This document shows, piece after piece, positions 11,803 through 44,291 of a DNA stretch of 64,000 nt (position 1 is its first letter; each line of letters opens with the position of its first letter). A program made the position numbers and the translations under genes. The notes under the pieces were generated by a model, which saw only the letters and a program-made list of their open reading frames with translations, made no database searches and had not been told where the DNA came from. The stretch is from assembly GCA_027596075.1 (NCBI GenBank), contig JADGJC010000086.1, forward strand, positions 1 through 64,000, written 5' to 3'. The stretch comes from Rhizophlyctis rosea (lineage: Eukaryota > Chytridiomycota > Chytridiomycetes > Rhizophlyctidales > Rhizophlyctidaceae).

Positions 11803-12323
11803 TTGTGGAGAGAGCTTTTTTAATCGAGGGATGGGGATTTCCAGGACTTTTTTGATTCCCCAGTTCGGGCATGAGCTGCACGTCGCACGGTGATGCAATT
11901 CTGTTTGGAGCACGTACTTACATGTAACGAAAGTTTCAATACAAGCCCACATCCATGTTGATCACCTGAAACGTTGCACTTGACCGCAGAACATATGGGG
12001 AATCGGGAGCCGATGTTAGATTCCAACGTTCCTTTTTTCATGTGAGCAACATCGATAAATAATTTAGCACCGTCCAAGCGTTTCACATGAATTTAAGGAA
12101 GAATCTTGGGATCGAAATAACGTGTGGCTCGACGCCCATATCAAGTGATCACCCAATTGGTGAAAAAAACCTTATATTCATTGCAAAACCTCGCAAATCG
12201 TGGAAGCTAAGCAAAGGCGTGCTTCACGGTTTTTACTAGCCAATCTTTGGAAGGCGGTTTCAAGTTAAGAAAAAGAGAAGCACGAGCTCGGCTTTAAAAA
12301 TTCCTGCCCGCCCCCCCCACCCC

Positions 12324-12600
12324 CCAAAACTCCTGCTGGCATTTGGCTTCGGCCCAGTACATTGTCATGCGGCTTGGACTCACTGAAAAATCACGGTGAC
12401 CCAAAACTCCTGCTGGCATTTGGCTTCGGCCCAGTACAACCCCATGCGGCTTGGACTTACTGAAAAAGCAAGGTGATGCTGTGGAAACATACATTTGCCA
12501 AAAAAACGAAAAAAAAGGCCCAGTACATTGTCATGCGGCTTGGACTTACTGAAAAAGCACGGTGATGCTGTGGAAACATACATTTGCCAAAAAAAAAAAA
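12324..12600. repeat. Short tandem repeat array, about 3 diverged units
   Basis: Units start near 12324, 12401 and 12517 (the last lacks its first bases). They share the core ggcccagtac, then catgcggcttggact, actgaaaaa and, in the last two, gatgctgtggaaacatac. Periods are about 77 and 89 bp. Units end in A-rich tracts. No coding potential or terminal inverted repeats were seen. It lies next to duplicated tRNA sequence. Confidence 0.8.
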
Positions 12601-12601
12601 A

Positions 12602-12708
12602 ATCGAAAAGGGAACGCAACGTATCGAACCAGTGCCTCCTGAGTGGATCAAAAGGAAAAATCGAAAAGGGAACGCAACATATCGAACCAGTGCCTCCTGA
12701 GTGGATCG
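12602..12708. repeat. 58-bp tandem duplication including the tRNA-Thr 3' end
   Basis: The block beginning atcgaaaagggaacgcaac and ending gtgcctcctgagtggatc occurs twice, at 12602 and 12660, with one base different in the shared core. The second copy continues into the intact minus-strand tRNA-Thr; the first stops after the last 17 bases or so of the tRNA and is a truncated copy. Confidence 0.8.
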
Positions 12709-12762
12709 AACACTCGACCTTCTGCTTACGAGGCAGACGCACTACCACTGTGCTAAGAAGGC
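12691..12762 (-). tRNA. tRNA-Thr (anticodon CGT)
   Basis: The reverse strand folds into a complete cloverleaf of 71 nt plus discriminator A. Acceptor stem GCCTTCT pairs with AGGAGGC (one G-U), D stem GCAC/GTGC has loop AGTGGTA, anticodon stem TCTGC/GCAGA has loop CTCGTAA (anticodon CGT), and T stem GAGTG/CACTC has loop TTCGATC. No intron is present. It decodes ACG. CCA is not encoded, as expected for a nuclear gene. Confidence 0.9.
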
Positions 12763-20216: not shown

Positions 20217-20893
20217 TTCGGTGGTTGTTGCCTGCCAGCCGTCAGAACCGTAACGTCAGTTGCCACTCAGCGTATTTTTACAAACGCTGACCAATACATA
20301 CGCTGCGCCAGAGTATTGTATACGCGTGCTCCCTATGTGATTCCCGCTATCAGTGCATTAGATTGTTAGTTTTGTGTGGGAACGAAAATAGTCCGCTTGT
20401 CCCTTCCGCCTCCACATCCAAAGTTGGTGATGTCAACAGTCACGTGAAGGATTACTTAGACTTCAATCTCACACGTGTCTGGTTGTGAACATCCCGCGAA
20501 TTTTTTCAAATCCCTGGAAACCAAAAAATTCACAAGAAAGAAAAGAAGACTCAAACAGAGACATAAGGGGAAGCATTCCATCATCATTCCCGCATGGCTG
20601 CGTAACGAATGCATGGGGCCTCTCAAGTCAGGCAAGATATGGAGTACATTGCTTCAGGCAAACTGAAAGTGAGCTGAACCACTTGAACCGTGGCGTTAGA
20701 ACTGGTCAAAAAGTTTGAAAGCGGCCAACACGATTGCCATAGACGAATGACTTCCTCAAAACTGCCACAGCACCATTCGTCAAACAAAGGGACACATCGG
20801 AGGGAAACTGCCAGAAACCGAGAAAAGAAAGGGACACATTAGAGGAAAACTGCCAGAAACCGAGAAAAAAAAGGTTGGGAGACAATGTGTGAC
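20217..20893. other. Intergenic, nothing recognised
   Basis: This is the upstream region of the SMP-START-GOLD gene up to tRNA-Cys. It contains a degenerate direct repeat near 20788-20872 (gggacacat followed by gaggaaaactgccagaaacc twice, about 40 bp apart) and A-rich tracts. No gene is supported. Confidence 0.4.
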
Positions 20894-20965
20894 AGGACTG
20901 ACCCGGGATTGAACCGGGGACCTATCGATCTGCAGTCGATTGCTCTACCACTGAGCCATCAGTCC
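20894..20965 (-). tRNA. tRNA-Cys (anticodon GCA)
   Basis: The reverse strand gives a full cloverleaf. Acceptor stem GGACTGA pairs with TCAGTCC, with discriminator T as usual for tRNA-Cys. The D arm is GCTC/GAGC, anticodon stem ATCGA/TCGAT has loop CTGCAGA (anticodon GCA), and T stem CCCGG/CCGGG has loop TTCAATC. No intron or encoded CCA. It is isolated, with no protein gene within 600 bp. Confidence 0.93.
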
Positions 20966-25119: not shown

Positions 25120-27244
25120 ATGAGCGCCCACATCAACGGTCTTTCGCACCTTCCCACTTTACACCAACCACTCGACATCCACTTCCACACTATCAAAGGG
25201 ATTTTTCGCACTGGTGGTGATGCCGAGCTTTCAAAACTTCTTAAATCCGGGAGTGTCAGTCCCCGTGCCACTCTAATGTACAGGCACTGCAAAGACATAC
25301 TTGACGACTGTTCCCACCCCGCGTTTGATGACGAGCGCAAAGTATCTTTGACAGCCATTGCAACGTACTTGAATGAAGGAGACCTTGTGGGGAGACTGTT
25401 GGCATGGGATGCGCTAGCAGGCGCGGATGCTAACGTAGTGGAATTCTTGATCCGGGAATGGCGTTTGATTTTTTTGCGTGGACAGATATAGGCAAAGAAG
25501 ATGGGGTTGTGGGCGATGCAATAGTGCTAGCGGCGACTCTTGGTCACGCAAAAGTCATCGCGGAGATCGTCAGTGCCAGCTATGAGGCCGGATTCGATAT
25601 TGGCAATTCAACAACTCTGGACCTGGAGTCACGCATCCTCTGTAATGCGCTGAATGCGGCCACAACAAATGGGCATCTGCACGTTGTGAAATGCCTGCTC
25701 GAATATGTCCAGTTCACCACGGATGTGCAACATGACGGGAACATTCACCCTCGGGAGGAAACGGCGTTGATTTTGGCGGCCAAACGGGGAAGGCTGGAAA
25801 CAGTAAGGTCCTTGGCTGCGGAAGGTGTGGATTTCGAGAGGGATGGGCGGGAAGCGCTCAGAATTACAGCAGTCAACGGGCACTCAGCAGTGGTAGAATA
25901 CTTTTTGAATCAGCATAACTTCTCCACGGAGGATGTGAAGAGCGTCCTGGACACCGCGGCAGATCATGGACAGTTCAAAGTAGTCGACCACCTCCTACAA
26001 CACTACAATCTCGATTCGGGAGGTCGTTGTGAGCACTGCAATCAAATGGGCGCACGTCCGAGAAACGAAGCGCTCGTCTTACATTACCACGTTACGACTT
26101 TTCTTACTCGCTGGTGTTTCGCCTGGTCCGGTGCCATCATACGAAGAAGACGCGAAGAATTTCAAAGCTGCGATCGTGAACGTTCTACCTGCCGCCTACC
26201 TTCATCGCCAATTGGACATGCAGAAACCAACAGAGTGAGCACGCGTACTTTATTAGGTACATCTTCTCTGTATCCTTGCTGTGATTTGGTGAGGCACGTG
26301 AACTGATTCAATTAACAGCTACAGAGTTAGCGCCGACCAGGACGTTGCAATAGAATTGAGACACCAGCTTGAAAAGCACTTACGTCAAGTTGATCCACTA
26401 AGTCATGTCTACCTTGACAAAGAGTGCCTCAAGAGCGCAGATGATTGGGAGGAAGGCTTCATGCAGGGACTTTTGCGATCAAAGGTATCCTTATTGACGT
26501 TTACTAACTGGCATTGGACATTCTGGCTCATCACGTCTCTCTCTCAGGTCATATTACTGTTATGCTCCGAAAAGTCATTGGAAAAACTTTCTTGGGCCCA
26601 CTTGACTCCGGATAATATGCTTCTAGAGGTCAGCTTTCATTCCATTGGCAGTCGGAAGCCAACCCCAACTTGATACATACATAACGTTGTTCCTTCTTGC
26701 AGTGGGAACATGGCTTAGAATTAGCAGCCTCAAACGCAGCCAAAGTGCTGCCAATTTGCTTGCCCTCTCCCACCGGAGCACCCTTCGCATTCAAGCTGCC
26801 GAGCGAGTGCCCCAAATACCGCCACGTCCATGCACAGAGCTTGCACCGGCGGACTGTCCGTCAAACCATGACGGACATCCCAAGATTACGGGGGAAGTTC
26901 CTGAAAAATCGGGATGTCGCAAGCGTCAGGAGGTAAGTTCTTTTGTTTCTGAATTTGCGAACGGGGCTTTTGAAGCATGGTGGAAAATGTTGATCAGAGC
27001 GACAAATTCTATCTCTTGCAGCGTCGCACAAGAGATCGTGAGTGAATTCGGAAAACCTCATCCAACACTGAGGGATAGTGAGTACGGTTCTGAGATCTCA
27101 TTGACTGCCCATTTGGATGCTGTGGAAAAGGCGATAGCTGGCTCTGAATTGACGTTGTGCTCGGATGTGATAGAACGGTTGGAAGAGATCTTGGCGGAGG
27201 TTAAGCAAAGGAAGACAAAGCTCATAGCAGGTCGGGAAGAATAG
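25120..27244 (+). CDS. Ankyrin-repeat protein with C-terminal TIR domain (frameshifted)
   Basis: TIR domains act in immunity and NAD+ signalling; many are NAD+-cleaving enzymes. Ankyrin repeats fill the first exon (NALNAATTNGHLHVVKCLLE, ETALILAAKRGRLETVRSLA, EALRITAVNGHSAVVEYFLN, DHGQFKVVDHLL). Exons 26319-26484, 26548-26628, 26703-26931 and 27022-27244 then encode a TIR domain: DYRVSADQDVAIELRHQL, VYLDKECLKSADDWEEGF, KVILLLCSEKSLEK, NMLLEWEHGLELA (Glu in the usual catalytic segment) and KVLPICLP. A 65-residue helical tail follows. Four introns of 61-90 bp have good GT-AG sites and matching phases. The first exon changes frame twice: at a T7 run (25469-25475), where one more T would join the frames, and near 26011-26024. 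The TIR exons are intact. It is either a recently disabled gene or has assembly errors. I start at the ATG at 25120. Confidence 0.7.
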
Positions 27245-42823: not shown

Positions 42824-42994
42824 CTCAACGTCGCGTTCATGTCCGTGATTTTCCCACCCTCATCAACAATCCAGTTCCTTCGTTGTTTCAATAGTTACTG
42901 CCATTTATTATAGACTCCTCAACACAATTGTCGAAACAGCGGTCGTTACAGCAAGCAAGTTTCCTTTACAGCGAGTGACATACACAACAGAACG

Positions 42995-44291
42995 ATGGAG
43001 TTGACTGGTGCGTTTGATGGTTTGTTGACTATCGGACGGAAAGCTCGCCATATCATCGTGCAAACGAGTTTCCTGTTCACCTCTCCCTCTTTCCTATGCT
43101 CTTCCCAACAGACACGTCCACCAAACCCAAACCCTCCAGCACAATCCTCATGCTCGACGCTGAAAACGAAATCGTCGAAGTCGAAAGCGGGACGAAGGAC
43201 CCGGCGGCGCTGAAGCCGACACCCACCAAAGTTCCACCGGAGATGACAGCAACAATTGAAGAACAACATACCATGGTCGTTTCGTCGGTGTCTTCCTCCA
43301 CCACTACCGCCGTTTGGACGCGCAAAGAACCGGAAGAGAGTGGGCGGCCGCCGACGAAACGGAGGAAGACGAGTTCGTTGACGGTTCCGAAGGCGGCGGG
43401 GAAGGGGAGGGGCGGTGGGCGGGCGGGTAAGAAGGGTGGTGGGNNNNNNNNNNNNNNNNNNNNNNNNNNNNNNNNNNNNNNNNNNNNNNNNNNNNNNNNN
43501 NNNNNNNNNNNNNNNNNNNNNNNNNNNNNNNNNNNNNNNNNNNNNNNNNNNNNNNNNNNNNNNNNNNNNNNNNNNNNNNNNNNNNNNNNNNNNNNNNNNN
43601 NNNNNNNNNNNNNNNNNNNNNNNNNNNNNNNNNNNNNNNNNNNNNNNNNNNNNNNNNNNNNNNNNNNNNNNNNNNNNNNNNNNNNNNNNNNNNNNNNNNN
43701 NNNNNNNNNNNNNNNNNNNNNNNNNNNNNNNNNNNNNNNNNNNNNNNNNNNNNNNNNNNNNNNNNNNNNNNNNNNNNNNNNNNNNNNNNNNNNNNNNNNN
43801 NNNNNNNNNNNNNNNNNNNNNNNNNNNNNNNNNNNNNNNNNNNNNNNNNNNNNNNNNNNNNNNNNNNNNNNNNNNNNNNNNNNNNNNNNNNNNNNNNNNN
43901 NNNNNNNNNNNNNNNNNNNNNNNNNNNNNNNNNNNNNNNNNNNNNNNNNNNNNNNNNNNNNNNNNNNNNNNNNNNNNNNNNNNNNNNNNNNNNNNNNNNN
44001 NNNNNNNNNNNNNNNNNNNNNNNNNNNNNNNNNNNNNNNNNNNNNNNNNNNNNNNNNNNNNNNNGCTCCTCCCCACCCCAATCAACCACAACAGCAACAG
44101 GCTGGACATGGGACGCACCACGCACCGAAGCCCTCCAAGTCGCGACCGCCAAACACGCAGAGCTGAAAGGCAACGACAAGTGGGATGCGGTCGCGAATGA
44201 GTTGAATGAGAGGTGGGGTGTGTCGGCTAAGCAGTGTATGGTTAAGTTTCAGAATTTGAAGAGGAAGCCGGGTGGGAGGGGTCAAGTTTGA
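42995..44291 (+). CDS. SANT/Myb-like protein, paralogue of the neighbour, interrupted by gap
   Basis: A 13-nt first exon (42995-43007, MELT) splices at 43112 into an acidic/basic disordered segment (STILMLDAENEIVEVESG, PPTKRRKTSS with a nuclear localisation signal) that runs into an assembly gap at 43444-44064. After the gap, in one continuous frame, comes a SANT-like C-terminus: GWTWDAPRTEALQVATAKHA, NDKWDAVANELNERWG, VSAKQCMVKFQNLKRK. Spacing of Trp and the QC..K element match the protein encoded at 40846-42022, so the two are probably diverged paralogues arranged head-to-head with about 970 bp between start codons. The gap length of 621 is a multiple of three, but the true missing length is unknown. 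Likely chromatin or DNA binding. Confidence 0.7.
43444..44064. other. Assembly gap (621 N)
   Basis: A run of N inside the SANT-like gene. The left flank is G-rich (ggcggtgggcgggcgggtaa) and codes for a Gly/Lys-rich tract, so the gap is probably a GC-rich, hard-to-sequence low-complexity stretch. Confidence 0.99.

What the first reader, a model, noticed from the sequence alone, without database searches (positions are those of the whole stretch)
25120..27244. Fungal ankyrin-TIR protein, immune-receptor-like architecture
TIR domains are scarce in fungi. Here a C-terminal TIR domain, with the SYR-like start, LDKECLKSADDWEEGF and a Glu in the NMLLEWEHG segment, follows ankyrin repeats. In plants, animals and bacteria such a sensor-plus-TIR layout is typical of innate immunity. 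A 65-residue helical tail after the TIR is unexplained. It could be part of a fungal NAD+-depleting defence or allorecognition system (inference).
Basis: partly seen in the sequence, partly recalled or inferred. Interest (0 to 1): 0.75.

Follow-up and report, generated by a model that had tools for sequence, protein, structure and literature searches.

The report
Chytrid ankyrin-TIR immune-receptor-like gene, broken copy
A soil chytrid fungus carries a family of genes that join an ankyrin-repeat sensor to a SARM1-like TIR domain, a build typical of immune receptors; the copy found here is one member whose sensor part is out of frame as assembled.

The parts
25120..25488 (+). N-terminal coding piece, ATG at 25120, frame 1, one ankyrin-like unit near its end (by eye); open until the stop at 25489-25491
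   Evidence: Pfam found no family in this piece on its own
25434..26040 (+). Ankyrin-repeat piece, frame 0 (first frame change lies in 25434-25488, second in 25984-26040)
   Evidence: Ank_2 100.5 bits, Ank 42.3, Ank_3 39.9; best bridging introns score -0.33 and -0.30
25984..26206 (+). Last ankyrin/linker piece, frame 1 (third frame change lies in 26180-26206)
   Evidence: reads like the paralogues' linker (by eye); no GT-AG intron can join it to the next exon
26180..26256 (+). First TIR exon: linker, conserved W-C block and strand betaA (NWTCRNQQSEHAYFI)
   Evidence: tblastn with the paralogue block, E 7.9e-07; joins in frame to SYRV
26257..26318 (+). Intron, 62 nt, GTACAT...ACAG
   Evidence: score 3.16
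26319..26484 (+). TIR exon: SYRVSADQDVAIELR...LDKECLKSADDWEEGFMQGLLRSK
26485..26547 (+). Intron, 63 nt
26548..26628 (+). TIR exon: VILLLCSEKSLEKLSWAHLTPDNMLLE; the last codon, 26626-26628, is the candidate catalytic Glu
   Evidence: family profile aligned with SARM1; invariant in A2 and A4
26629..26702 (+). Intron, 74 nt, at the position shared by 23 of the 26 class-I TIR loci held
26703..26932 (+). TIR exon: WEHGLELAASNAAKVLPICL... to the end of the TIR
26933..27021 (+). Intron, 89 nt, GTAAGT...GCAG
27022..27244 (+). C-terminal tail (helical by the paralogue model) and stop codon
   Evidence: leave-one-out profile 15.7 bits, best of 197 scored shuffles 8.1; helices 720-754 and 762-790 in P0004

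Best explanation
This is one copy of an ankyrin-repeat - TIR - helical-tail gene family of the chytrid Rhizophlyctis rosea. SHOWN by sequence and prediction: in intact members the ankyrin stack leads through a linker with a conserved W-C...H-FI block into a SARM1-type TIR with the catalytic Glu in place, followed in most by a helical tail. INFERRED mechanism: the ankyrin stack binds a microbial or non-self ligand, or guards a host protein, and holds the TIRs apart; on binding, the tail and TIR-TIR contacts assemble the TIRs, which cleave NAD+ (depletion, or a cyclic-ADPR-like signal) and trigger regulated cell death or defence. The same TIR module, with a shared intron position, also sits on NACHT receptors in this genome. 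SHOWN: the copy in the window has an intact TIR-tail part, but its ankyrin/linker part is out of frame three times as assembled. INFERRED: it is more likely a decaying family member than a working receptor.
Against: No enzyme, expression or phenotype data. The structure is of a paralogue; window TIR identity to paralogue TIRs is 36-49%, depending on the pair and the call. By single-sequence phmmer the window TIR matches no PDB chain at E <= 10. Four residues before the Glu, SARM1 has Trp where this family has Asn. The window copy is out of frame upstream. The ankyrin ligand is unknown. Two ankyrin-TIR loci (L014, L046) lack the conserved tail and P0001 barely passes; the TIR tree does not unite all ankyrin-TIRs.
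Confidence: 0.6

Rival explanations
1. The gene is intact and the three frame changes are assembly errors; the window copy is a working full-length ankyrin-TIR protein.
For: The pieces are long and open in their own frames and still carry ankyrin and linker sequence; all splice sites of the TIR part and the tail are kept; one of the three zones holds a long homopolymer run. A frame break also shows in an HSP70 gene of the same assembly (C294), so indel errors or broken copies occur elsewhere.
Against: Three breaks within about 0.8 kb. Among the HSP70 matches only C294 stood out by eye as a break without room for an intron; two other loci (C225, C344) have stops inside matches that I took for introns without checking. 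Paralogues P0002 and P0004 are annotated full length in the same assembly. Two of the three zones lack long homopolymers.
Confidence: 0.35
2. The TIR is a scaffold (MyD88-like) and not an enzyme; signalling is by homotypic TIR contacts.
For: Some animal TIRs work this way (recalled). The Trp four residues before the Glu in SARM1 is not kept.
Against: The best PDB matches of the profile are NAD+ hydrolases (SARM1), with tir-1 further down, and the Glu is invariant in 15 of 15 and 32 of 32 rows.
Confidence: 0.2
3. The family has a non-immune role, for example a SARM1-like metabolic or developmental NAD+ switch.
For: SARM1 senses metabolites (recalled); the ankyrin ligand is unknown. The paralogue's ankyrin stack also resembles the RNase L sensor, which binds 2-5A.
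Against: Several divergent copies in one genome, a broken copy, and the same TIR module on NACHT receptors fit a receptor repertoire better.
Confidence: 0.2
4. Bacterial contamination or a chance overlap of an ankyrin gene and a TIR gene.
For: Ankyrin repeats are very common here (851 first-look candidates, 150 scored).
Against: Four spliceosomal introns in the TIR-tail part; single open frames across ankyrin and TIR in L028 and up to betaA in L019; the same TIR class in other chytrids.
Confidence: 0.02

Closest known systems
SARM1 / C. elegans TIR-1 NAD+ hydrolases
   Same: C-terminal TIR behind a helical repeat sensor; best PDB match by profile and among the best TIR matches by fold; Glu and FISYR start aligned
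   Different: Sensor is ankyrin, not ARM; no SAM found; helical tail after the TIR; activity untested
Uncharacterised ankyrin-TIR proteins of oomycetes (mentioned in PMC9153377, section 6, read)
   Same: Ankyrin repeats fused to TIR
   Different: Other kingdom; sequence kinship and domain order not compared here
Chytrid TIR-NLRs (PMC9815663: TIR reported in NLRs of Chytridiomycota, passage seen; here P0005 of Chytridium lagenaria)
   Same: Same TIR class, 38% identity over 97% of the P0004 TIR region for P0005; within R. rosea a shared intron position
   Different: They carry NACHT and, in P0005, WD40; the window gene shows no NTPase domain
HET-domain allorecognition proteins of filamentous fungi
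   Same: Described in print as remotely TIR-related and cell-death-inducing (PMC4986451, PMC10197012, passages)
   Different: Pfam places the window domain in TIR_2 and lists no HET; HET matches occur elsewhere in this genome (34)
RNase L
   Different: Effector is a nuclease (recalled), not a TIR

Membership tests
TIR domain superfamily | Profile match over the curated cut-off | tested here: met
   TIR_2 41.5 bits, cut-off 28. PF01582 has 0 matches in the genome at E <= 0.01
TIR domain superfamily | Flavodoxin-like TIR fold | tested here: met
TIR NAD+ hydrolases (SARM1 type) | Catalytic Glu | tested here: met
   Family profile aligned with SARM1 Glu (identity of the SARM1 residue recalled); the window codon is 26626-26628
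TIR NAD+ hydrolases (SARM1 type) | NAD+ cleavage | not testable with these tools
   Needs an assay
SARM1 orthologue | ARM repeats and tandem SAM before the TIR | tested here: not met
   Pfam finds ankyrin repeats, no ARM or SAM
NLR (NACHT/NB-ARC receptor) | NACHT or NB-ARC domain in the same protein | tested here: not met
   Pfam shows only Ank and TIR_2 families in the window pieces and in P0001-P0004
HET domain protein | PF06985 match | tested here: not met
   No HET match for the window pieces or P0001-P0004
R. rosea ankyrin-TIR family (this work) | Ankyrin repeats, W-C...H-FI block, class-I TIR | tested here: met
R. rosea ankyrin-TIR family (this work) | Continuous reading frame | tested here: not met
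   Three frame changes in the window copy
Oomycete ankyrin-TIR proteins | Sequence kinship with them | not tested
   Known only from PMC9153377; none identified in my searches

The most novel reading that the evidence does not exclude
An early-diverging fungus runs a full TIR-based immune repertoire: one SARM1-type NADase module mounted on interchangeable sensors (ankyrin stacks, NACHT receptors, NB-ARC-TPR), with ankyrin-TIRs forming a fast-turnover, NLR-independent sensor-NADase class that differs between strains and leaves broken copies such as this one.
Probability: 0.4. Interest if true: 0.8.

Novelty: new variant of a known kind. Interest (0 to 1): 0.5.

Why it matters
Fungal immunity is framed in the papers I looked at around NLRs and HET domains of filamentous fungi; a 2014 survey found no NLRs in chytrids (PMC4986451, passage). 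A chytrid genome with 48 TIR places, 26 with a NACHT-type domain just 3' and at least seven ankyrin-TIR loci, offers a tractable, SARM1-like sensor-effector family for testing whether NAD+-based immunity was present early in fungi. The single window gene matters less, because it is a broken copy as assembled.

Tried and rejected
First gene model rejected: I took a donor at 26235, which dropped strand betaA and made the TIR look truncated; tblastn with the paralogue block found betaA in a third frame. The TIR alignment A2 and the tree still use the window row without betaA.

Ab initio joining of the ankyrin pieces by introns was rejected: the joins score below the real introns and delete ankyrin-like sequence.

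Frame changes in L014 and L027 looked similar, but introns with scores as good as real ones exist there, so I do not count them as broken.

First structure of P0004 with 4 sequences had TIR pLDDT mostly below 50, and the 50 rows shown of its Foldseek search held no TIR; it was replaced by the 32-sequence model, whose 50 Foldseek rows do. Full-length SARM1 and TIR-1 matches have rmsd 26-30 and are not read as a match of the whole architecture.

Neighbouring open frames in the window (10 of 26 listed were scanned: amino-acid transporter, zinc finger, GOLD_2, seven without a Pfam match at E <= 0.01) gave no functional link.

Not found in print: searches showed no title or abstract start that describes a fungal ankyrin-TIR family. 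They cover open PMC papers only, and some lists were cut (15 of 28 papers, 15 of 148, 10 of 16). PMC9153377 section 6 was read whole and other passages of it seen; PMC4986451, PMC9815663, PMC10197012, PMC4102429 and PMC7075850 were seen only as passages.

Full report
What was checked. The finding spans 25120-27244. Stop-to-stop frames show three overlapping coding pieces upstream (25120-25488 in frame 1, 25434 to about 26040 in frame 0, 25984 to about 26206 in frame 1) and then a spliced part.

The TIR part. My first model used a donor at 26235 and lacked the first strand. A tblastn search with the corresponding block of paralogues found NWTCRNQQSEHAYFI in another frame at 26195-26260. With the donor at 26257 (62-nt intron) the reading from 26180 to 27244 is open for 258 residues...NWTCRNQQSEHAYFISYRVSADQDVAIELR...YLDKECLKSADDWEEGFMQGLLRSKVILLLCS...DNMLLEWEHGLEL... 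and a C-terminal tail. Pfam gives TIR_2 41.5 bits (E 2.2e-10, cut-off 28).

The upstream part. The frame-0 piece matches Ank_2 at 100.5 bits; the 123-residue first piece matches nothing in Pfam by itself. The frame changes were tested as introns. The best candidates score -0.33 and -0.30 for the first two, against 2.85, 3.12, 3.16 and 6.46 for the four introns of the TIR part (the scoring is my own). The third change has no usable acceptor at all. As assembled, I see no spliced full-length protein. HSP70 matches were scanned by eye for similar breaks; C294 shows one without room for an intron, and stops inside matches at C225 and C344 were taken for introns without checking. That is a weak control, and pseudogene versus assembly error stays open, with pseudogene favoured.

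The organism. A search with the window TIR region gave 4 proteins at E <= 0.01 among 1875 candidates, all Rhizophlyctis rosea: P0001 (HK097_002214) and P0002-P0004 (HDV00 locus tags). The contig lengths of P0002, P0003 and P0004 (12291, 26966, 120230) equal those of C576, C383 and C7 of the window's genome. R. rosea belongs to Chytridiomycota, Rhizophlyctidales. My gene finder gave 757 residues for L019, the length of P0002.

The family. P0001-P0004 carry ankyrin repeats and TIR_2; P0003's TIR_2 is 25.3 bits, under the cut-off of 28, the annotated protein lacking betaA. L014 also carries both. With L028 and L046, whose ankyrin part rests on tblastn with a generic consensus and, for L028, the window ankyrin part, this makes at least seven ankyrin-TIR loci in this genome: C620 (window), C576, C383, C7, C346, C63, C249. 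In L028 a single open frame runs through ankyrin repeats into the TIR, and in L019 one runs to betaA, so the fusion does not depend on my splicing. Scores against profiles built from the tails of window, P0002, P0003, P0004 and L028 (the tested one left out), with the best shuffle: window 15.7 v 8.1, P0002 18.4 v 4.1, P0003 10.3 v 6.8, P0004 24.1 v 7.1, L028 19.1 v 8.1; of the three never used for the profile, P0001 4.7 v 3.9 (shorter tail), L014 0.2 v 4.8 (fails), L046 no score (fails); 179 to 200 shuffles scored each.

The company it keeps. Merging the places gives 48 TIR places. From I left out ten of 48 rows, nine with E from 0.002 to 7.7 and one further row of the window gene, and the rows overlapping places already in; all of them lie at loci in the merge. 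These are matches at E <= 0.001, not 48 verified genes. NPHP3_N/NACHT has 29 matches; 27 have a TIR 5' of them on the same strand within 3 kb, at 26 distinct TIR places; the two without are on C30 and C157. That both lie in one gene was confirmed by Pfam on predicted proteins only for L021 and L053; L058 has NB-ARC plus TPR, its TIR_2 at 22.7 bits being under cut-off. HET has 34 matches. Of the 26 held class-I loci, 23 have GT directly after the LLE codon; C99, C10 and C330 do not, which suggests that the ankyrin-TIR and TIR-NACHT genes share one ancestral TIR module. A tree of 26 TIRs (four partial slices, L015, L024, L031 and L035, left out; P0005 and P0006 added) clusters the ankyrin-TIRs more than shuffles (0 of 500 as low) but needs 3 changes, and 0% of 200 bootstrap trees unite them; L046 sits with the non-ankyrin L012. 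Outside R. rosea the same TIR class appears in Chytridium lagenaria (P0005, with NACHT and WD40) and Synchytrium microbalum (P0006, a kinase-TIR-WD40 model that may be a misjoined annotation), as a TIR-only protein in Rhizoclosmatium globosum, and in unnamed metagenome or EukProt sequences (30 proteins at E <= 0.001 among 3111 candidates). None of these showed ankyrin repeats in the precomputed Pfam column as displayed, but that column is cut for P0005 and P0006, and the length limits exclude long proteins.

How it most likely works. Ankyrin stack as sensor or guard, TIR as NAD+-cleaving effector, tail as a possible oligomerisation aid: the anatomy is shown, the activity and the biological role are inferred. 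Defence or allorecognition is favoured over a metabolic role because of copy number, divergence and the shared module with NACHT receptors.

Known or new. TIRs in chytrid NLRs are mentioned in PMC9815663 (passage); ankyrin-TIR proteins of oomycetes in PMC9153377 (section); a small group of fungal TIR-NLRs in PMC10197012 (passage). A fungal ankyrin-TIR family was not found in print in the searches named under Tried and rejected. I therefore call it a new variant of a known kind.

Noticed in passing
own genome, 26 places: NACHT (NPHP3_N) domains in this chytrid almost always follow a TIR: 27 of 29 matches, suggesting TIR is its main NLR effector.
   Followed up: partly
own genome: 34 HET-domain matches in the same chytrid genome, next to the TIR repertoire.
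   Followed up: no
L021-L024, L030, L043 N-termini: By eye, an N-terminal ubiquitin-like or Crinkler-like stretch precedes the TIR in several predictions; Pfam names none of it in the two tested, L021 and L043.
   Followed up: partly
L015 (G000:C330): A Ras/Rho-like GTPase (Pfam Ras, 135 bits) lies just 5' of a class-I TIR; fused or only adjacent is not settled.
   Followed up: partly
L048, L051: Class-II TIRs followed by what look like Sel1-type repeats (by eye).
   Followed up: no
P0005 residues 1-60: The Chytridium lagenaria TIR-NACHT-WD40 protein begins with what looks like a SAM domain by eye; it is not among the 25 of 55 Pfam rows shown.
   Followed up: no
window 42946-44291: Six overlapping open frames of 272-426 codons on both strands; the longest has no Pfam match. 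Unexplained.
   Followed up: no
window 12323-12762 and 20782-20965: Both tRNA genes found in the window (minus strand) have tandem arrays at or just beyond their 3' end.
   Followed up: no
G000:C294:33147-35125: An HSP70 gene with adjacent pieces in different frames beside a second HSP70 match on the other strand: broken copy or assembly error.
   Followed up: no
P0001 v P0002-P0004: The four ankyrin-TIR proteins returned from two R. rosea assemblies are each alone in their 90% cluster, a hint of turnover between strains; strain divergence was not measured.
   Followed up: no
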